Virus record (IMG/VR): IMGVR_UViG_3300023184_000395
Span: 1 to 29,711 of that record
Length of the DNA stretch: 29,711 nt
Origin: a virus
Direction: 5' to 3' (one strand)
This document shows, in pieces, positions 559-12,147 of the stretch. Positions within the stretch are counted from its first letter, which is position 1. Every line of letters begins with the position of its first letter. The notes under the pieces are model-generated. The model ran no database searches. It saw nothing but the letters and a program-made list of their open reading frames with translations, and had not been told where the DNA came from. A program made the position numbers and the translations under genes.

Positions 559-951
559 GTGTCCGATCGATTCTTTTATGCTGCAAAGGTTTTGCATGTG
601 GTTGATGGGGACACCGTCGATTTGATGATTGACCTCGGGTTTAATATCCATCACGAAATCCGTGTCCGACTTTACGGTGTTGATACACCGGAATCGCGTA
701 CGACTAACGTGGCTGAGAAAGCCGCCGGACTGAAATCCAAAGCCTTTGTTACTGCTTGGACAGCCAATAATCCGAATGTGTTCATCCAAACGATGAAAGA
801 CAAAAACGAAAAGTACGGTCGTATTTTGGCGAACATGTATGCTGACGAAGCAAAAACTGAATGCTTGAATACACGACTCGTGACAGAAGGATTTGCTAAA
901 GCATATTTCGGCGATAAAAAAGAAGCGTTCAATGCAGGTGTCACAGCCTGA
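559..951 (+). CDS. Thermonuclease-like (SNase family) nuclease
   Basis: A 130-residue protein matching the staphylococcal-nuclease fold nearly end to end. The motifs are D-G-D-T (16-19), R-L-Y-G-V-D-T-P-E (37-45) and K-Y-G-R (85-88). By analogy with S. aureus nuclease, the calcium ligands are Asp18 and Asp42, and the catalytic residues are Arg37, Glu45 and Arg88; all are present, so it should be active as a calcium-dependent endonuclease on DNA or RNA. There is no signal peptide, so it would act in the infected cell. Start is GTG with GAGGAAG about 9 bases upstream. Phages use such enzymes for host nucleic acid breakdown or recombination; the exact role here is unknown. Confidence 0.88.
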   Translation: MSDRFFYAAKVLHVVDGDTVDLMIDLGFNIHHEIRVRLYGVDTPESRTTNVAEKAAGLKSKAFVTAWTANNPNVFIQTMKDKNEKYGRILANMYADEAKTECLNTRLVTEGFAKAYFGDKKEAFNAGVTA

Positions 952-2192: not shown

Positions 2193-2654
2193 ATGAAACG
2201 TAAAGATTTTAGCGATGCCGATAGTTTGCTTGCGTTCGATTTGGAACGACATTTTTGGACTGTGCAGCCGTCTTACAATGCGTTGTTTCCAAAAATCTAT
2301 GGTGTCGAAGTTCACAGAGATGGACTTGAAGATTTGTTAATTGAAGATATGGAAACCGGTGAATGCTTAGATTTAGGTGTCGAGCCGTCATTTGCTGTTG
2401 CCACCATGAATGGTTGGTCTGCAGAGCCGAATAGTTTTTTTGATTACGCTACCCCTACGGCTAATCCTGATGCACGTCGAATCCGTGCAACTGTCGTGAT
2501 GTCAAGATTTGCCACACGCGTAATTTGCAGACGTGCCGGAGATCACTCACCAAGTGCGTTGTACAAATTGCAACAGATTTCAGATTCAGCCAACTTGTTT
2601 GAAGAAATGCGTATGACGTTGCAAACTGTTAGTTATGGGCTGGTCGAACCGTAA
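2193..2654 (+). CDS. Hypothetical protein
   Basis: A 153-residue soluble protein of mixed alpha/beta appearance with a start that fits a leaderless transcript. I recognise no domain. The C-terminal third (helical, rich in Arg, Met and Leu) follows a region with V-I-C-R-R-A-G-D-H-S around residues 108-117. It overlaps the next gene by one base (TAATG), implying translational coupling. The 26 bases between 2167 and 2193 hold only the promoter. Confidence 0.7.
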   Translation: MKRKDFSDADSLLAFDLERHFWTVQPSYNALFPKIYGVEVHRDGLEDLLIEDMETGECLDLGVEPSFAVATMNGWSAEPNSFFDYATPTANPDARRIRATVVMSRFATRVICRRAGDHSPSALYKLQQISDSANLFEEMRMTLQTVSYGLVEP

Positions 2655-2809
2655 TGTTCAAGGAAGAATATCGTTGTCCGAAATGTGATTGCACGATTGT
2701 TGTTCATGTCAAACTTCGTGAGTCTCCAACTTGTCAGAACCCTGAAGCACATAGCGCGACAGCGATTGTTATGATGCCTGCTGACACGGTCGAATCAGAC
2801 ATTTCTTAA
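2654..2809 (+). CDS. Small zinc-ribbon protein
   Basis: A 51-residue frame whose ATG overlaps the preceding stop. The sequence begins M-F-K-E-E-Y-R-C-P-K-C and has a later Cys in P-T-C-Q-N-P, matching a small zinc-finger type common in actinobacteriophages (Y-R-C-P-K-C near the start, P-x-C-x-N-P near residue 28). A third cysteine (C-D-C) lies right after the first pair. Probably a nucleic-acid or protein-binding ribbon. It is the last gene before an operon break. Confidence 0.7.
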   Translation: MFKEEYRCPKCDCTIVVHVKLRESPTCQNPEAHSATAIVMMPADTVESDIS

Positions 2810-2823
2810 ACTTTGTTTGTTTG

Positions 2824-2838
2824 CCTTATGCTATAAGG
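2824..2838. terminator. Small palindrome or terminator between operons
   Basis: CCTTAT-GCT-ATAAGG, a perfect 6-bp stem with a 3-base loop, 15 bases after the stop at 2809 and 20 bases upstream of the next -35 box. There is no U-run after it, so it may be an operator rather than a terminator. A related CCTTATG...ATAA core occurs in the palindrome at 18133-18161, also just upstream of a leaderless promoter. Confidence 0.4.
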
Positions 2839-2858
2839 TGTGTTCCCGTTGGAATTGC

Positions 2859-2887
2859 TTGCATTTAGCGTACGCGTCCGACAAGAT
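2859..2887 (+). promoter_or_regulatory. Leaderless promoter for the 2894 gene
   Basis: TTGCAT (2859-2864), 17-bp spacer, CAAGAT (2882-2887), 6 bases, then ATG ACA at 2894. The hexamers, spacer length and distance to the start codon match those at 4581 and 18166 almost base for base. Confidence 0.7.
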
Positions 2888-2893
2888 GAATGT

Positions 2894-3196
2894 ATGACAA
2901 AAAACACAGGAAAGAGGGGAATGATGAGAGAGTTCAGTACAGACGAAAAAGTTTGGCTTGCCCAATATATGCACGGGTTCTCCAAAAACATTAAGAAAGG
3001 TGATGAGGCGCTGTATATCAGCGTTCGTACTTACCAGTTGTTATGGGGGATTAAGCGGATTGCCGGTATGAGCGCTGAATATGGTTTGTCGAAGCAACGT
3101 GGTCGTAGCCTTGAGATGGTGACATTGAAAGTTTGGAAAGCCGGACTTGCAAAGTTGGCGTTGCAAGGTGCTCTTGATGTGGCGGTAGCAGCATGA
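2894..3196 (+). CDS. Hypothetical basic helical protein
   Basis: A 100-residue, mostly helical, basic protein with several aromatic residues in the middle and a hydrophobic alanine-rich C-terminus (residues about 82-100). I chose ATG 2894 because of the upstream promoter spacing. A purine run (AGAGGGG) before the double ATG at 2921/2924 makes a start nine or ten codons later possible. The stop overlaps the next start by four bases (ATGA). Possibly DNA-binding given its charge and helices, but no helix-turn-helix can be assigned with confidence. Confidence 0.65.
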   Translation: MTKNTGKRGMMREFSTDEKVWLAQYMHGFSKNIKKGDEALYISVRTYQLLWGIKRIAGMSAEYGLSKQRGRSLEMVTLKVWKAGLAKLALQGALDVAVAA

Positions 3197-5977: not shown

Positions 5978-6268
5978 ATGGCTAAACGCACCACCACAGT
6001 AAAGAAAACCGCGGTCAAGTACAAAATTGGCGATGTGTTACTCGTGCGATGGTTCGATGCACATAATCACGAATCAGGTTGGGAAGAATTGAAAGACTTG
6101 AAACCTGTTCCGTGTGAAGCGTTCACCGCAGGATTTTTCCTTATGCAGACAGAGCACGAACTAATCCTTGCAGGCGATCTGATTAAGGAAGGAACGTGTA
6201 CAAACACACGTATGTGTATTCCATTGGGAATGGTTAAAGAAGTCAAAAAGGTACATAATGCTGAATGA
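5978..6268 (+). CDS. Conserved phage hypothetical protein, beta-rich
   Basis: A 96-residue protein with a basic Thr/Lys-rich start followed by a likely SH3-like beta barrel: G-D-V-L-L-V-R-W-F-D-A-H (residues 18-29), an H-E-L-I-L-A-G-D-L segment and a closing I-P-L-G-M-V-K-E-V. Proteins with this pattern (strand, D-A-H, later I-P-x-G-M-V) occur just ahead of portal genes in other phages. ATG 5978 has no ribosome binding site but does have a TACGAT box 6 bases upstream. It overlaps the portal gene by 11 bases. Confidence 0.65.
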   Translation: MAKRTTTVKKTAVKYKIGDVLLVRWFDAHNHESGWEELKDLKPVPCEAFTAGFFLMQTEHELILAGDLIKEGTCTNTRMCIPLGMVKEVKKVHNAE

Positions 6269-7688
6269 GCCATTGTCCGCTGAAAACGCGTTCGAGGAAT
6301 TAGGTGTATCCGGTCTAAAGCGAACTGGTGGATTTATTCATGAGGAGTTCCTTACCGGACTTCGTGGAACGGTTGGCGCTAAGGCGTACCGTGAAATGTC
6401 TGACAACGATCCGATTGTCGGTGCTTTGCTTTTCGCTATTGAGCGATTGATTCTGAACATCGACTGGCGTGTTGATGCCTACGAAGGCGAGGATCAAACG
6501 CAGGACGACATCGACACAGCAAAGTTTATTGATTCGTGCATGTACGACATGAACGTGCCGTGGCAACAGTTCATTTCAGAGGTTCTGTCCATGTTGGTGT
6601 ATGGATATGCCTTCTGCGAAATCGTGTACAAAAAACGTGATGGTGAAAGCGAAGATGGTGGTTCGTCTGCATACGATGACGGCAAAATCGGTTGGCGCAA
6701 AATTGCTGTACGCGCACAAGAAACCACATGGTCATGGCAGTTGGATACCAAAGGCGGTATTCAGGGCATGTACCAAATGGATCCGAACGGGATTGCTGCT
6801 AAGGGAAACATTTTTATTCCGATTGAGAAAGCATTGTTGTTTCGTACAACAGCGAACAGAAACAACCCTGAGGGTCGTTCGTTGCTACGAAATGCTTACC
6901 GTCCATGGCGTTTCAAGAAAACGATTGAAGAAATCGAGGCTGTGGGTATTGAGCGTGATTTGGCTGGATTGCCTGTTGCTCATGTTCCACCGGAAATGCT
7001 TTCAAGCCGTGCAACTGCTGACATGGTCATGGCTAGAGGTGCGATTGAGGACTTAGTACGCGGGATTAAGCGCAATGAAAACGAAGGCATCCTGTTCCCC
7101 CTTGCCTACGATGCTGATGGTAGAGAGCAGTACAGATTGTCGCTTTTAACGACCGGTGGTGCACGACAATTCGATACCGACAAAATTGTTGCGCGTTACG
7201 ATCAACGTATTGCGATGACAGCGTTGGCTGACTTCATTTTGCTCGGTCACGAAAACGTAGGATCGTTTGCTTTGGGTGCATCGAAGGTTGACTTGTTTAC
7301 GACTGCTATTCAGCAGATTGCTCGCTCGATCGCTCAGGTTCTGAACCAGTACGCGGTTCCTCGTCTGCTTAAACTAAACGGTATTAAAACTGCTCATCAG
7401 CCGGAAATCACGTTCGGCGAAATCGTCCATGTGGACTTGGCGTTGCTCGGCGACTTTATTCAGAAAACTGCTGGTGCTGGTGCACTTGTTGTTGACGGTG
7501 GCTTAGATACGTATTTGCGTAATCTTTCCGGTATGCCACCAAGGGAAGAAAAAGATGGTGTGATGCCGATCCCCGAAGCACCGAAGCCTGCGGCGGTTCC
7601 TAAAGAAGTAGTTGCAGAAGAAGCGAAGGCTGAGGACGACGTCGAGACAGAGGGTGGTGCTCCCGAAGCAGCAAATCTGAAGTTGTAG
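6258..7688 (+). CDS. Portal protein (DUF935-like)
   Basis: A 476-residue protein, normal length for a siphovirus portal. It resembles the Mu gp29/DUF935 group: an N-terminal D-N-D-P-I-V-G-A-L-L segment near residues 49-58, an L-V-Y-G-Y-A-F-C-E-I-V-Y strand near 112-123, and a G-R-S-L-L-R-N-A-Y-R-P-W-R-F-K-K stem helix around 206-221. The last 50 residues are Ala/Pro/Glu-rich and disordered. The portal forms the dodecameric DNA gate at one head vertex and anchors the packaging motor. The start at ATG 6258 is preceded by AAAAAGG. Its position immediately before the MuF gene supports the call. Confidence 0.88.
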   Translation: MLNEPLSAENAFEELGVSGLKRTGGFIHEEFLTGLRGTVGAKAYREMSDNDPIVGALLFAIERLILNIDWRVDAYEGEDQTQDDIDTAKFIDSCMYDMNVPWQQFISEVLSMLVYGYAFCEIVYKKRDGESEDGGSSAYDDGKIGWRKIAVRAQETTWSWQLDTKGGIQGMYQMDPNGIAAKGNIFIPIEKALLFRTTANRNNPEGRSLLRNAYRPWRFKKTIEEIEAVGIERDLAGLPVAHVPPEMLSSRATADMVMARGAIEDLVRGIKRNENEGILFPLAYDADGREQYRLSLLTTGGARQFDTDKIVARYDQRIAMTALADFILLGHENVGSFALGASKVDLFTTAIQQIARSIAQVLNQYAVPRLLKLNGIKTAHQPEITFGEIVHVDLALLGDFIQKTAGAGALVVDGGLDTYLRNLSGMPPREEKDGVMPIPEAPKPAAVPKEVVAEEAKAEDDVETEGGAPEAANLKL

Positions 7689-7690
7689 TT

Positions 7691-10102
7691 ATGTTTGTTC
7701 ACGTCAAAACGAAAGACGTTCAACGTACCCGAAGTACGAATTTGATGTTGAAAGCGTCGTTGCCTAATACGTCTGCCGGTATTCGTGCCACACGAGTATT
7801 GACAGCAGAAGAAAATGCTGTTGCTAACGCTTATCGTAATCTTGTAAGCCTTATTGCTGACGGAACAGATATGGCTCAGATTCAGTTCTTGATGGATAGC
7901 GGTTTGGTGAATACCAATTTGGCGAACATTCCCGCTGAGTTTGCTGCTGGCGTTGAAAACACGATTGCTGCTGCAACTGTTTCGGAGGCTGTCCGTGAAG
8001 CACGATCTTTGCCACAAGAAATCGTTACAAGGTATGACTTCGAAAAACTCGATCCGAGAGCCGTCGCGTACGCTCGTGAACGTGCTGGAACGTTTGTAAA
8101 ACAACTCTCGGAGGAACAGCGAAGAATAGTTCATGATTCTTTGGTTGCCGGCATCGAACAGCAATTAACTGCAACGCAAATAGCGCAGTCAATACGCGGT
8201 CAAATCGGTTTGCATGATCGTTGGGCTAAAGCCGTTGAAAGCGCCCATGCTGTAGAACTCAAACGACTTACGGATACCGGTATGGCGCTAGATAAAGCCG
8301 AAGCGAAGGCGCAAGCATTTCGCGAAAGGTATCACGATCGTTTGCTTCGTGCCCGAGCGTCAAACATTGCGCGTACTGAAATACAGACAGCACAGAATCA
8401 AGGACGTTTCATGTCATGGTTGGAAGCCGGACAGCAAAAACTGATCGATCCCAAAACTGCGAAGAAACAATGGTTGACCGGTCCTTCGACGTCAATGGCT
8501 GGAAAGCCAACGGTGTGTGATATTTGTTCTGCTTTAAGTAATGAAACAGTCAAAGTATTTGAGGATTTTTCTGTTGGTGTGAAGATGCCGCCTGCTCACC
8601 CGAATTGTCGTTGTACGGCTGTGATTGTTCCGATTTCTATTGAAGAAATAAAAGAATTGTTGTCTTACACGGATCAGGAATATGCGGCAGCAGATGAGAT
8701 AAGAAATAGGGCTTTAGAAATTGAGCCTGCGGTAACGATGCAGATGCAAGGTTTGGCAGATGTTCACGGTGGTCGACTCGATGGTTTGCAACACCGACTT
8801 AAGGAACGTAATTCGTTGGCAAGAAAGATTGCTGGTGAAACACGGTTTGCGGAGACTCCGATCTCTACTGCTCAGGCTGCCGCAGAAATGCGCGACGTGG
8901 TGCGTTACACGATGGTTCTTGAAGAAAACCAATATGCTGCAGAAACACAAAAGATTCTTAATTCGTTAAAGCGAACGAATTCTGAGGTGAGAGTAAAAAC
9001 ACGATGGACTAAGCCGGACACGTATCACGGTGTAAACATCCATGTGAAAACCGTAAATGGTGATTGGTTCGAATTGCAATTACATACCGAAGCGTCTTTG
9101 CAGAAGAAAAATGAAGTTCACCGCTTGTATGAGATGCAAAGAAAGTTGGATCCGAAGTCTGCCGAATGGCGCAAATTGCAATTAGAGATGGAAGATGTAA
9201 TTGACGGTCTGAAAGTTCCACGAGGTGTAAAGAATATTCCGGGCTTTGGTGGTGGACGTGTAACATTGGTCGATGAGCCGATTTCGTCTGTTACGTCTGC
9301 GTACCGTCCTGCGAAGTTCAAGGTGCAAACTGTTGAGGATGCAATTCCCCATGCGATAACAGAATCTGAGAAAAAAGGTTATGGCGCTACAGTTAAATCA
9401 GGTGAACGCTTAGTTCAAGATCAAGGTTTTGATGGTCTGCCGCAAATAGTGACGAAGGAACAAGCCGACACGTTAATTGCTGATGGTTGGCAGCCGATCT
9501 ATAGGGGGTTGTCTCATAGTGGTGAAAAAAGTTTGGCGCAAGCATTTCTTGAAGGCGACTATTTTTATGGGCAAGGCATTTATGGAAACGGCACATACAC
9601 AAGTACGAATATAAAAACAGCGATTGATTATGCTGGTCGACGTTTCGGTGCGCGACCCGGATCAGAAGTTGTTCAGATGCTTATATCGCCGGAAGCGAAG
9701 TTCATCGAACACAGTCAGTTGGCTATTGAATCGAATGAAATGAAAATGAAGTTGATTGATAGTATTTCTGAACTGAACAAGGAACGCACAGCGTATTGGG
9801 CTGCTGCAGAAGATGCGTCTTTTACTCCGCAGAACCTTGCGATTAACGCAGAGTTTGATGCTCGTCAAGAATTGCTGACACGAACTTACGACGTGTTTAT
9901 GTACAATGACAGTAACGCTGCAATGCTTTTAGGCTATGACGGAATTATGATTAACCTTGAAGGTGGTGAGCAGTATTACATTGTTCTAAACCGAACGTCC
10001 GTAGCGGCACGTGACATCACAAGTGTTCTCGATAACCCTAAATTGAAGTCGCTAGGTGAGCATTTCGGTGCAGATGCTGCCAAGGTGTTCAAGCCGTCTT
10101 GA
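7691..10102 (+). CDS. MuF minor head protein fused to RelA/SpoT-like and ADP-ribosyltransferase-like domains
   Basis: An 803-residue protein. Residues about 130-312 are a phage Mu gpF-like head domain, with C276-D-I-C279 and H303-P-N-C-R-C308 as the metal-site motif. Residues about 358-480 read as a RelA/SpoT-type nucleotidyltransferase: R369-x-K371-x3-S375-x3-K379 matches the ATP-binding loop of (p)ppGpp synthetases, then D402-V-V-R, Y445-H-G-V-N and E461-L-Q463-L-H-T. Residues about 595-775 look like an ADP-ribosyltransferase: I-Y-R605-G, G-N-G-T-Y-T-S-T (632-639) and E760-Q-Y-Y-I-V-L-N-R. MuF proteins sit inside the capsid near the portal, so the toxic domains may be injected with DNA (inference). 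Substrates are unknown. The portal-class MuF neighbourhood is typical; the double effector tail is not. Confidence 0.85.
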   Translation: MFVHVKTKDVQRTRSTNLMLKASLPNTSAGIRATRVLTAEENAVANAYRNLVSLIADGTDMAQIQFLMDSGLVNTNLANIPAEFAAGVENTIAAATVSEAVREARSLPQEIVTRYDFEKLDPRAVAYARERAGTFVKQLSEEQRRIVHDSLVAGIEQQLTATQIAQSIRGQIGLHDRWAKAVESAHAVELKRLTDTGMALDKAEAKAQAFRERYHDRLLRARASNIARTEIQTAQNQGRFMSWLEAGQQKLIDPKTAKKQWLTGPSTSMAGKPTVCDICSALSNETVKVFEDFSVGVKMPPAHPNCRCTAVIVPISIEEIKELLSYTDQEYAAADEIRNRALEIEPAVTMQMQGLADVHGGRLDGLQHRLKERNSLARKIAGETRFAETPISTAQAAAEMRDVVRYTMVLEENQYAAETQKILNSLKRTNSEVRVKTRWTKPDTYHGVNIHVKTVNGDWFELQLHTEASLQKKNEVHRLYEMQRKLDPKSAEWRKLQLEMEDVIDGLKVPRGVKNIPGFGGGRVTLVDEPISSVTSAYRPAKFKVQTVEDAIPHAITESEKKGYGATVKSGERLVQDQGFDGLPQIVTKEQADTLIADGWQPIYRGLSHSGEKSLAQAFLEGDYFYGQGIYGNGTYTSTNIKTAIDYAGRRFGARPGSEVVQMLISPEAKFIEHSQLAIESNEMKMKLIDSISELNKERTAYWAAAEDASFTPQNLAINAEFDARQELLTRTYDVFMYNDSNAAMLLGYDGIMINLEGGEQYYIVLNRTSVAARDITSVLDNPKLKSLGEHFGADAAKVFKPS

Positions 10103-10117: not shown

Positions 10118-10342
10118 ATGAACCCTGACGTATCACGGCGCATAGCAAAAGCCTTAGCACCATTGAAAATTGAGTCTAAGCACCGATTTATGATTGGTCT
10201 TAAAAGTGAAAAAGCACGATCCTTTGAAACCCTGCCGAATTGGGTAAAAGAGATTGTTTATTTCGGTGAGCGAAACGGTCAAAAAGCAGATATGTCCGTC
10301 GACTTGCCCGAAGCCTTCGCTCGCTCCATACCCAAAAAATAG
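10118..10342 (+). CDS. Small basic protein downstream of the MuF effector
   Basis: A 74-residue, strongly basic protein. The N-terminus is helical, followed by a P-N-W-V-K-E-I-V-Y-F-G-E-R-N-G segment and an acidic patch. No family is recognised. It lies 15 bases after the MuF stop, lacks a Shine-Dalgarno sequence and has its own -10-like TATATT, so it could be expressed independently. Position and independent expression make it a candidate immunity protein for the effector domains, which is inference only. Confidence 0.55.
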   Translation: MNPDVSRRIAKALAPLKIESKHRFMIGLKSEKARSFETLPNWVKEIVYFGERNGQKADMSVDLPEAFARSIPKK

Positions 10343-10391: not shown

Positions 10392-10664
10392 ATGACGCGG
10401 ACGTGGACATTTGCATTGCATCCGAAGTATGATGAAATTGTGCCAAAGCCGGATCGTTACTGGAAATATGTAATCGACAACAAGGACGATGTTCGTGGCA
10501 TTTACAGATTTCTGCGATCTACTCTAGTTCTTGAAGCCTTTGTAGGTGGCAGGTGGATTCGTGCTCACGAAATGTATGAACGTGTCACGCAGGAGCCGGA
10601 TTTTATCGAGATTACAAAATCTGAATGTGCTCGACTTGTAGCCAACAGCACAACTGCTGTTTAG
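10392..10664 (+). CDS. Hypothetical protein downstream of the MuF effector
   Basis: A 90-residue soluble protein rich in aromatic and charged residues (W-T-F-A-L-H-P-K-Y-D-E-I near the start; Y-W-K-Y in the middle), ending in a helical segment. The longer frame starting at 10254 overlaps the previous gene and is unlikely. No ribosome binding site precedes ATG 10392, and a TTGTTG/TAAGTA promoter is possible. With the preceding gene it interrupts the portal-MuF-protease order. Unknown function; candidate immunity or accessory protein. Confidence 0.55.
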   Translation: MTRTWTFALHPKYDEIVPKPDRYWKYVIDNKDDVRGIYRFLRSTLVLEAFVGGRWIRAHEMYERVTQEPDFIEITKSECARLVANSTTAV

Positions 10665-10701: not shown

Positions 10702-12147
10702 GTGCCTGACGCAAACATCAAGAAGTTATCTGATCGTGCTCTAGTTTTAGCCCATGATGCCTTGCATACAAAGGAATTGTCCGATGGGGTGGTTTTAGCG
10801 CATCACCTGATAGCCGATGAAATCCGGAAACGGAAAATCGAGCATGTGCCGTCAACCGACGTATTGCACGACAAAGTCGTTTCTATGTCAAAAGTCACCA
10901 TGAAGATTTCGGCGCTTGATAAGCAGATGTCTGAAACTGAGGTGAAAGCCGTAGCAGAGATGGCTATGCGTAACGGTGCAAAGTTTGCTGATGTTCATGA
11001 ATTGCTTACTGCTCAAGGATGGTCGCTCGGTGCTACGCCGTCCATGGAGAATCCTGAAGATATGTCAGGTGAACCTGACGATGAGAATGAATCAGAATTA
11101 CCGTTCTTGACGCCTCGTCAGAATGAAATGTATTCAGACTTGTGTGAACTGGTAGATGAGATGGGTCAATTTGTTCAGGACGCTTCGCCTGATGGTGCGC
11201 ATTATATGATGCCCGCTGAAAATCCGTTTCGTAGCAAAGGATTGAAATGCTCAAATTGTGTCTTTTACGAAGGTGGTGGCAGATGTCACGTCGTTCAAGG
11301 CAGCGTTGAAGCGGAAGGTCTTTGCAAACTTTGGATCATTGAAGGGTTGAAGGTTAAAAAAGAAAATGAAGTTGTTGCAGAAGATTTTTCCGATTGGGTA
11401 GAGAAAGCCGAAACGTACACTCCGCCAAAAGGTGTTCAAGCCGAAGGAAAACGTGCTTTAGAATGGATCAGCGAAGGTCATGCTGGTAATGGTTTCACCT
11501 CTGTCGGTCGAACTCGTGCAAGTCAGTTAGCAAATGGTGATGCTTTAACGCTTCGTACTGTTACGCGCATGAAAAGTTATTTAGGTCGTCATCAAGCCGA
11601 TAAACAGGCTGAAGGATTTCATGTAGGTGAAAAAGGGTATCCGTCGCCGGGTCGTGTTGCTTGGGCTGCTTGGGGTGGAGATGCTGCTTGGGATTGGACA
11701 CGCTCAATCTTAGACAGAGTTGATAAATCGTTGATCGTTAAAAGTGTTGCTGAGAAGCGTTTTACGCTCGGTCCGTGGTATGTGCCTAACACTTTGGATG
11801 CCCATAACGAATGGACTGATCCCGAACAGTTACAGGATGCTCTTTGGAATTACGTAAAGAAGGCTGATCGTACTATCAGATTGCAACATCAGCCGAACAC
11901 GAAAGCCGGTGAATGGGTTGAGGCTATGACGATGCCTTTTGAGACTGTTGTTCCGGTGTTGGATCCGTCGACTAATTCGTTGAACAAACAGAAGTTTCCT
12001 GCCGGAACGGTTTTTCTCGGTGTTCAATGGGAACCGTGGGCTTGGGAAATGGTGAAGAAGGGTCAGATTCGCGGCTACAGCATTGGTGGGCTGGCTGCAC
12101 GTAAGAAAGAAAAACTTAGCGGCATTTACGTCGATTTAATGCAGTAA
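10702..12147 (+). CDS. XkdF-like prohead protease, multidomain
   Basis: A 481-residue protein. The C-terminal part (about 354-466) matches the XkdF-like/Peptidase S78-type family: L-G-P-W-Y-V-P-N-T-L-D-A-H, R-L-Q-H-Q, then G-T-V-F-L-G-V-Q-W and G-Q-I-R-G-Y-S-I-G-G. Upstream are a HiPIP-like four-cysteine segment (C183, C186, C195, C208) and a conserved helical domain (about 240-338, ending P-S-P-G-R-V-A-W-A-A-W-G-G-D) that I know from other phage protease and MuF-region proteins. It should mature the procapsid by cleaving scaffold and capsid termini. The GTG start is chosen from the promoter spacing. I cannot assign the catalytic residues with confidence. Confidence 0.8.
   Translation: MPDANIKKLSDRALVLAHDALHTKELSDGVVLAHHLIADEIRKRKIEHVPSTDVLHDKVVSMSKVTMKISALDKQMSETEVKAVAEMAMRNGAKFADVHELLTAQGWSLGATPSMENPEDMSGEPDDENESELPFLTPRQNEMYSDLCELVDEMGQFVQDASPDGAHYMMPAENPFRSKGLKCSNCVFYEGGGRCHVVQGSVEAEGLCKLWIIEGLKVKKENEVVAEDFSDWVEKAETYTPPKGVQAEGKRALEWISEGHAGNGFTSVGRTRASQLANGDALTLRTVTRMKSYLGRHQADKQAEGFHVGEKGYPSPGRVAWAAWGGDAAWDWTRSILDRVDKSLIVKSVAEKRFTLGPWYVPNTLDAHNEWTDPEQLQDALWNYVKKADRTIRLQHQPNTKAGEWVEAMTMPFETVVPVLDPSTNSLNKQKFPAGTVFLGVQWEPWAWEMVKKGQIRGYSIGGLAARKKEKLSGIYVDLMQ

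What the first reader, a model, noticed from the sequence alone, without database searches (positions are those of the whole stretch)
7691..10102. MuF head protein carrying both a RelA/SpoT-like and an ADP-ribosyltransferase-like domain
Seen: after the MuF motif (C276/C279, H303-P-N-C-R-C308) residues 369-379 read R-x-K-x3-S-x3-K, the ATP loop pattern of (p)ppGpp synthetases, followed by E461-x-Q463. Further on are I-Y-R605-G, G-N-G-T-Y-T-S-T and E760-Q-Y-Y, laid out as an ADP-ribosyltransferase. Known: MuF proteins reach the capsid interior and can carry toxin domains. Inferred: two nucleotide-using effectors are delivered with the DNA, perhaps to reprogram the host or exclude rivals. One protein with both is unusual.
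Basis: partly seen in the sequence, partly recalled or inferred. Interest (0 to 1): 0.88.

Follow-up and report, generated by a model that had tools for sequence, protein, structure and literature searches.

The report
Phage head protein with two toxins
A structural head protein of an uncultured phage carries two predicted toxin enzymes in one chain, an alarmone synthetase and an ADP-ribosyltransferase, and is followed by two small genes that each match the gene found right behind that toxin type in other phages, so the locus looks like one toxin-and-partner cassette nested inside another.

Summary
ORF 7691-10102 (803 aa) is a MuF minor head protein followed by a small alarmone synthetase (SAS, residues 339-516) and an ADP-ribosyltransferase-fold domain (ART, 574-775). 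Profiles built without the window score 152 and 119 bits (best of 2,000 shuffles: 6 and 12). AlphaFold models match SaEAS (TM 0.84) and, with modest scores, ART-superfamily structures. All synthetase catalytic residues are present; R605, Y636 and E760 are present, but E760 is not universal among relatives.

Each half is a known kind: MuF-SAS is Apk2 and MuF-ART is Bxa. Multi-effector head proteins are also known (cyanophage PSS2). Less expected is the locus around it. The two small ORFs behind the gene each match, best in a 21,631-ORF background, the ORF right behind a single-toxin relative: 10118-10342 matches an ART gene's neighbour, 10392-10664 a MuF-SAS gene's neighbour. The order is SAS-[ART-ART partner]-SAS partner. 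In a relative lineage, a 700-bp ART-bearing segment is present (L199) or absent (L203) between SAS and its partner.

Best reading: a two-warhead MuF polymorphic toxin built by nesting toxin/partner cassettes. Immunity function, injection and both activities are inferred, not shown. New variant of a known kind.

The parts
6258..7688 (+). Mu-type portal protein, directly upstream
   Evidence: Pfam Portal_Mu 1.5e-32; PHROG 113 portal 8e-85; 53% identical to Arthrobacter phage portals
7691..10102 (+). MuF-SAS-ART protein, 803 aa
   Evidence: single open frame
7691..8632 (+). MuF head-morphogenesis part, residues 1-314
   Evidence: PHROG 16493 1e-34, PHROG 3517 7e-34; PF04233 1.3e-8 above cut-off
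8705..9238 (+). small alarmone synthetase domain, residues 339-516, catalytic R369 K371 S375 K379 D402 R405 Y445 N449 E461 Q463
   Evidence: profile without window 152 bits; PDB 8vx3 3.5e-17; model pLDDT 91.6, Foldseek 8vx3 TM 0.84
9410..10015 (+). ADP-ribosyltransferase-fold domain, residues 574-775, R605 Y636 E760
   Evidence: profile without window 119 bits; model pLDDT 75; Foldseek hits MbcT, AcrIF11, RES toxins, tankyrase and ART-PolyVal in BFVD
10118..10342 (+). 74-aa ORF, candidate partner (immunity?) of the ART domain
   Evidence: best non-self hit in 21,631 ORFs is the ORF right behind the MuF-ART gene of L091, 9.4e-8; hit by the partner profile with any one group left out, 4e-9 to 2.4e-3
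10392..10664 (+). 90-aa ORF, candidate partner (immunity?) of the SAS domain, in IapK-like position
   Evidence: best non-self hit is the ORF right behind the MuF-SAS gene of L189, 4.5e-7; no significant IapK homology
10702..12147 (+). next gene, XkdF-like protease domain protein; marks the right edge of the cassette region
   Evidence: PF14550 1.2e-12; homologues follow at the same place in L189 and L091

Best explanation
This is a phage MuF polymorphic toxin with two enzymatic warheads in series. The MuF part would seat the protein in the capsid near the portal, and the C-terminal part would enter the host with the DNA (inferred from MuF biology). There the SAS domain would make pyrophosphorylated nucleotides, (p)ppApp and/or (p)ppGpp, draining ATP, and the ART domain would consume NAD+ to ADP-ribosylate host targets or simply to deplete NAD+. 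The two small genes behind it would protect the producing cell: 10118-10342 against the ART and 10392-10664 against the SAS. The order SAS-[ART-ART partner]-SAS partner shows how it arose: an ART-plus-partner cassette was inserted between an existing SAS toxin and its partner. Shown here: domain make-up, catalytic residues, partner associations and the nested order. Inferred: both activities, immunity function, injection and purpose.
For: Domain profiles without the window 152 and 119 bits against at most 12 in shuffles. SAS fold 8vx3 TM 0.84, and Tas1 (Apk1) and other SAS structures follow. ART model: the six best PDB hits are RES/MbcT toxins and the anti-CRISPR ART 6kyf (the identity of 6kyf as AcrIF11 is from general knowledge), and BFVD hits include annotated ART-PolyVal proteins. 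The 10118-10342 family sits directly behind the MuF-ART genes L090-L110 in several lineages and was not found at E below 0.01 in the MuF-only relatives in the same database. In other relatives it is the N-terminus of the gene that overlaps the ART gene by 4 bp (profile-profile 94.9%, controls below 1%). 10392-10664 matches the ORF behind L189's MuF-SAS gene, which recurs in L205. Synteny: L189 is portal, MuF-SAS, SAS partner, next gene; L091 is MuF-ART, ART partner, next gene; the window has both toxins and both partners in nested order. L199 against L203: flanks 84-85% identical, a 700-bp ART-bearing segment in L199 where L203 has 8 bp, between SAS and its partner. Single-domain relatives are proven toxins with immunity genes: Apk2 (PMC12226406) and Bxa (PMC11699363).
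Against: No activity, toxicity or immunity is shown. The ART model is only moderately confident (pLDDT 75, low TM-scores because of a long helical insert). E760 aligns with Q or non-acidic residues in several relatives, so some members may be inactive or use another mechanism. The SAS partner is not significantly similar to IapK. No Aph1-type hydrolase gene was recognised downstream. The ART-bearing segment of L199 carries a different ART clade from the window, so the inserted-cassette case is an analogy, and insertion versus deletion was not polarised. The exact architecture rests on one uncultured record.
Confidence: 0.66

Rival explanations
1. The two domains are injected helpers for infection rather than toxins: the alarmone synthetase shuts down or redirects host transcription and the ART modifies host proteins as T4 Alt does, and the small ORFs are packaging chaperones or adaptors rather than immunity proteins.
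For: Polyvalent and head-packaged ART proteins are interpreted this way (PMC5512222, PMC9503650). In several relatives the ART partner is fused to the N-terminus of the next gene in the head region, which an adaptor would also explain.
Against: Apk2 and Bxa, the nearest characterised single-warhead MuF proteins, kill bacteria and have adjacent immunity genes. The partners follow toxin type, not the MuF type.
Confidence: 0.25
2. One or both domains are catalytically dead and serve as structural or binding modules.
For: E760 is not conserved across the ART family; [quoted passage not shown]
Against: All synthetase catalytic residues are kept and R605, Y636 and E760 are all present in this protein. 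Dedicated partner ORFs would be unnecessary.
Confidence: 0.1
3. The SAS-ART fusion is an assembly or sequencing artefact.
For: Single uncultured record; no other record with the same architecture and the same ART clade was found.
Against: Uninterrupted 803-codon frame with even GC and GC3 through MuF, SAS, ART and both partners. The two matching partners follow in nested order. A parallel MuF-SAS-ART architecture was recovered from several metagenomes.
Confidence: 0.04

Closest known systems
Apk2, MuF-type (p)ppApp synthetase toxins of pneumococcal and Pasteurellaceae prophages
   Same: MuF N-terminus, SAS domain 28-36% identical with the same catalytic residues, small ORF directly behind the gene in the IapK position
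   Different: Apk2 ends at the SAS domain; the window protein carries a further ART domain; its small ORF is not significantly IapK-like, and no Aph1 hydrolase gene was recognised behind it; product specificity untested
Bxa, MuF-type ADP-ribosyltransferase toxin of a Bacteroides stercoris prophage
   Same: MuF N-terminus, C-terminal ART, adjacent small immunity-type ORFs
   Different: Bxa has one warhead and an ADP-ribosyl-hydrolase immunity gene; kinship of the two ART domains was not tested here
Cyanophage PSS2 minor head protein (ACT65592)
   Same: MuF protein with several effector domains, including an ART of the same family
   Different: zeta-toxin domain instead of a synthetase; Q instead of E at the position of E760; no partner ORF recognised in the same orientation
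SaEAS (PDB 8vx3), exported alarmone synthetase of Streptomyces albidoflavus
   Same: closest solved structure of the SAS domain (TM 0.84); RYT and GxN signatures
   Different: Sec-exported single-domain enzyme, no MuF, no ART
ART-PolyVal (PF18760) and polyvalent proteins
   Same: weak profile similarity and fold matches to annotated ART-PolyVal proteins; several effectors in one chain
   Different: below the Pfam cut-off; polyvalent proteins are generally longer chains with many domains and are not described with nested partner genes

Membership tests
MuF polymorphic toxins | MuF domain at the N-terminus, encoded next to the portal in the head region | tested here: met
   PF04233 above cut-off; portal gene ends 3 bp upstream
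MuF polymorphic toxins | C-terminal toxin domain with homologues in other toxin systems | tested here: met
   SAS similar to SaEAS, Tas1 (Apk1) and the XopAD C-terminus; ART fold
MuF polymorphic toxins | small immunity gene directly downstream | tested here: inconclusive
   two small ORFs with toxin-specific association; neutralisation not testable here
MuF polymorphic toxins | carried by a temperate phage | tested here: inconclusive
   29.7-kb fragment; no integrase recognised in the ORFs scanned, but not every ORF was scanned
Apk2 (MuF plus (p)ppApp synthetase) | MuF plus SAS domain with the Syn catalytic residues | tested here: met
Apk2 (MuF plus (p)ppApp synthetase) | SAS domain is the C-terminal end of the protein | tested here: not met
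   287 residues follow the SAS domain
Apk2 (MuF plus (p)ppApp synthetase) | iapK and aph1 immunity genes follow | tested here: not met
   no significant IapK similarity; the two downstream ORFs of 74 and 90 aa have no Pfam match and no HD hydrolase was recognised there
Apk2 (MuF plus (p)ppApp synthetase) | product is (p)ppApp only | not testable with these tools
   signature residues are shared with the dual-product SaEAS
ADP-ribosyltransferase superfamily | ART fold | tested here: met
   Foldseek PDB hits MbcT, 6kyf and RES toxins at 3e-4 to 4e-3; BFVD; modest model confidence
ADP-ribosyltransferase superfamily | active-site triad (here R605, Y636, E760) | tested here: inconclusive
   R and Y invariant in the family; E present here but not in all relatives
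ART-PolyVal (PF18760) | score above the curated cut-off | tested here: not met
   15.5 bits, cut-off 31.2
RelA_SpoT (PF04607) | score above the curated cut-off | tested here: not met
   18.1-21.8 bits, cut-off 27; the fold and all catalytic residues nevertheless match

The most novel reading that the evidence does not exclude
Head-gene regions of this phage group are toxin-stacking sites: effector cassettes, each travelling with its own partner module, are added one behind another at the end of the MuF gene, so that the newest cassette lies between an older toxin and its immunity gene, and a partner can ride as the N-terminus of the next effector.
Probability: 0.45. Interest if true: 0.72.

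Novelty: new variant of a known kind. Interest (0 to 1): 0.58.

Why it matters
The two MuF toxins characterised so far each carry one warhead, an alarmone synthetase (Apk2) or an ADP-ribosyltransferase (Bxa). Here both types occur in one head protein with a candidate partner gene for each. The nested order and the related pair L199/L203 give a testable account of how phages stack toxins: a cassette goes in between a toxin and its immunity gene, and both toxin-partner pairs remain together. The partner families named here are new leads for immunity proteins, and each makes a clear prediction: it should neutralise one domain and not the other.

Tried and rejected
A full-length protein search of viral contigs found no close relative. 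A near-identity DNA search of phage genomes found nothing. The ART profile found no relative in the genome collection and no solved-structure sequence; no plasmid match for the ART domain. Weak Pfam hits (CAGE1, ColA_N, DUF3220, Prenyltransf) were dismissed as chance. I first read 10118-10342 as the IapK counterpart because it sits in that position; similarity showed that it belongs to the ART and that 10392-10664 goes with the SAS. IapK homology of 10392-10664 was tested and not supported. An alignment of divergent SAS domains was too diverse for a collection scan. Recent acquisition by base composition was checked: GC is even across the gene. Sequence search of the L183 ART-like domain against solved structures gave only chance-like hits; its assignment rests on a sub-threshold PF03496 match and R, STT and EYE motifs.

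Full report
What is there. ORF 7691-10102 is one open frame of 803 codons, 3 bp behind a Mu-type portal gene. Residues 1-314 are a MuF head protein (PHROG 16493, 1e-34; PF04233 above cut-off). Residues 339-516 are a small alarmone synthetase (SAS) and residues 574-775 an ADP-ribosyltransferase-fold (ART) domain. Profiles built from relatives without the window score 152 and 119 bits on the protein; the best of 2,000 shuffles score 6.4 and 12.1.

Synthetase domain. It matches SaEAS (PDB 8vx3, 3.5e-17), the C-terminal part of the XopAD family model (1.2e-26) and Apk2 proteins of Streptococcus, Mannheimia, Pasteurella and Aggregatibacter phages (28-36% identity). R369, K371, S375, K379, D402, R405, Y445, N449, E461 and Q463 are kept. 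The AlphaFold model has pLDDT 91.6 and its best Foldseek hits are SaEAS (TM 0.84), Tas1 and other SAS enzymes. The product cannot be called: the RYT and GxN signatures occur both in (p)ppApp-only Apk2 and in SaEAS, which makes (p)ppGpp and (p)ppApp.

ART domain. Relatives are rare: 21 loci in viral contigs plus cyanophage PSS2 and Gordonia phages. Several are MuF proteins with this domain at the C-terminus (L090, L091, L093, L105). The family invariants are R605-G, the G-x-Y-G-N-G-x-Y636 motif and a GxD near the end. E760 is glutamate here and in L090, L091 and L105 but not in PSS2 or the L094 group. The model has pLDDT 75. The best PDB hits are the RES-type toxins and 6kyf, all ART-fold (3e-4 to 4e-3; fold assignments from general knowledge), and BFVD hits include annotated ART-PolyVal proteins. 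ART fold is therefore likely; whether it modifies macromolecules or just consumes NAD+ is open.

Partner ORFs. In a background of 21,631 ORFs from the window and all loci then held, the 74-aa ORF 10118-10342 best matches, after itself, the 53-aa ORF directly behind the MuF-ART gene of L091 (9.4e-8); the 90-aa ORF 10392-10664 best matches the 67-aa ORF directly behind the MuF-SAS gene of L189 (4.5e-7). Small ORFs with the core P-x-x-S-R-[RE]-[IL]-A follow the MuF-ART genes in several lineages. These were picked by position, and a profile of them finds the window ORF with any one group left out (4e-9 to 2.4e-3); recovery of the left-out groups themselves ranges from 1e-11 (L110) to not significant (L090, L093, L107). 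In relatives with a separate ART gene, the next gene overlaps it by 4 bp and starts with the same module (profile-profile 94.9%, E 4.7e-8, controls below 1%). IapK similarity of the SAS partner is not significant, although its position is that of IapK.

Nested order. L189 (portal 72% identical over the held part) reads portal, MuF-SAS, SAS partner, next gene. L091 reads MuF-ART, ART partner, next gene (1.4e-44 to the window's next gene). The window reads portal, MuF-SAS-ART, ART partner, SAS partner, next gene. This is the order expected if an ART-plus-partner cassette was placed between a SAS toxin and its partner. An independent case shows such a step: L199 and L203 align at 85% and 84% on both sides, with a 700-bp segment in L199 (positions 2333-3032) against 8 bp in L203; the segment carries an ART-like domain and lies between the SAS domain and its partner ORF. 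That ART-like domain is of another clade (R, STT, EYE motifs; PF03496 at 0.011, below cut-off). Whether L199 gained or L203 lost the segment was not determined. The architecture recurs in L183, L199 and L201, and in L200, whose 5' end is cut off.

How common. Of 87 SAS-bearing ORFs in the first viral set, 86 end within about 10 residues of the SAS domain; the window is the exception. Of 71 MuF ORFs found in loci with portals 51-72% identical to the window's, three have C-terminal extensions over 40 residues: L183, L189 and L196. The searches are pattern-limited and retain at most 80 loci, so these are not frequencies in nature.

Likely mechanism. MuF toxins are thought to sit in the head and enter the cell with DNA (PMC5576092; PMC12226406). 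The two characterised kinds are Apk2, a bactericidal (p)ppApp synthetase, and Bxa, an arginine ADP-ribosyltransferase, both with adjacent immunity genes. The window protein combines both types. Two hits on separate pools (ATP or GTP, and NAD+) would be harder to survive and harder to escape with a single immunity gene. This last step is inference.

Limits. One uncultured 29.7-kb record; host unknown, probably actinobacterial because the closest cultured portals are from Arthrobacter phages and the related locus L183 carries a WhiB gene. No activity, immunity or virion data. Not every ORF of the window was annotated.

Noticed in passing
L183/L199-L202, L204, L182, L196, L171-L175, L143, L140, L166, L152, L191: A short motif of the type KHxxHDQxTHGxWA (or KHxxGQHxQQSHAGG) precedes effector-type domains in many head-region proteins of this phage group; variants such as GHPFRGNQ, GSGHFxHxGRPG and FGGDRSxAGRYAA occur at like places (L120, L189, L014, L124). 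It could be a packaging or processing signal. None was found in the window by a simple pattern.
   Followed up: partly
L182 13228-15339; L014 6468-9415: The SAS domain also occurs at the end of a protein further downstream of the MuF gene (L182), and in L014 the SAS partner appears as the N-terminus of the following 982-aa protein.
   Followed up: partly
L132 9344-12526: A 1061-aa protein behind the MuF gene carries a peptidase-M90-like domain (3.9e-7) and an ART domain.
   Followed up: no
L196 1979-4138: MuF protein with a 377-aa extension matching DUF3626 (3.5e-7), a possible further effector type.
   Followed up: no
L203/L199 partner ORFs: The SAS-partner ORF of L199 has an N-terminal segment absent from L203, apparently brought by the ART-bearing segment.
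   Followed up: partly
window 559-951: ORF matches an endonuclease family (PHROG 452, 1.8e-39). Most other upstream ORFs that were scanned have no recognised family.
   Followed up: no
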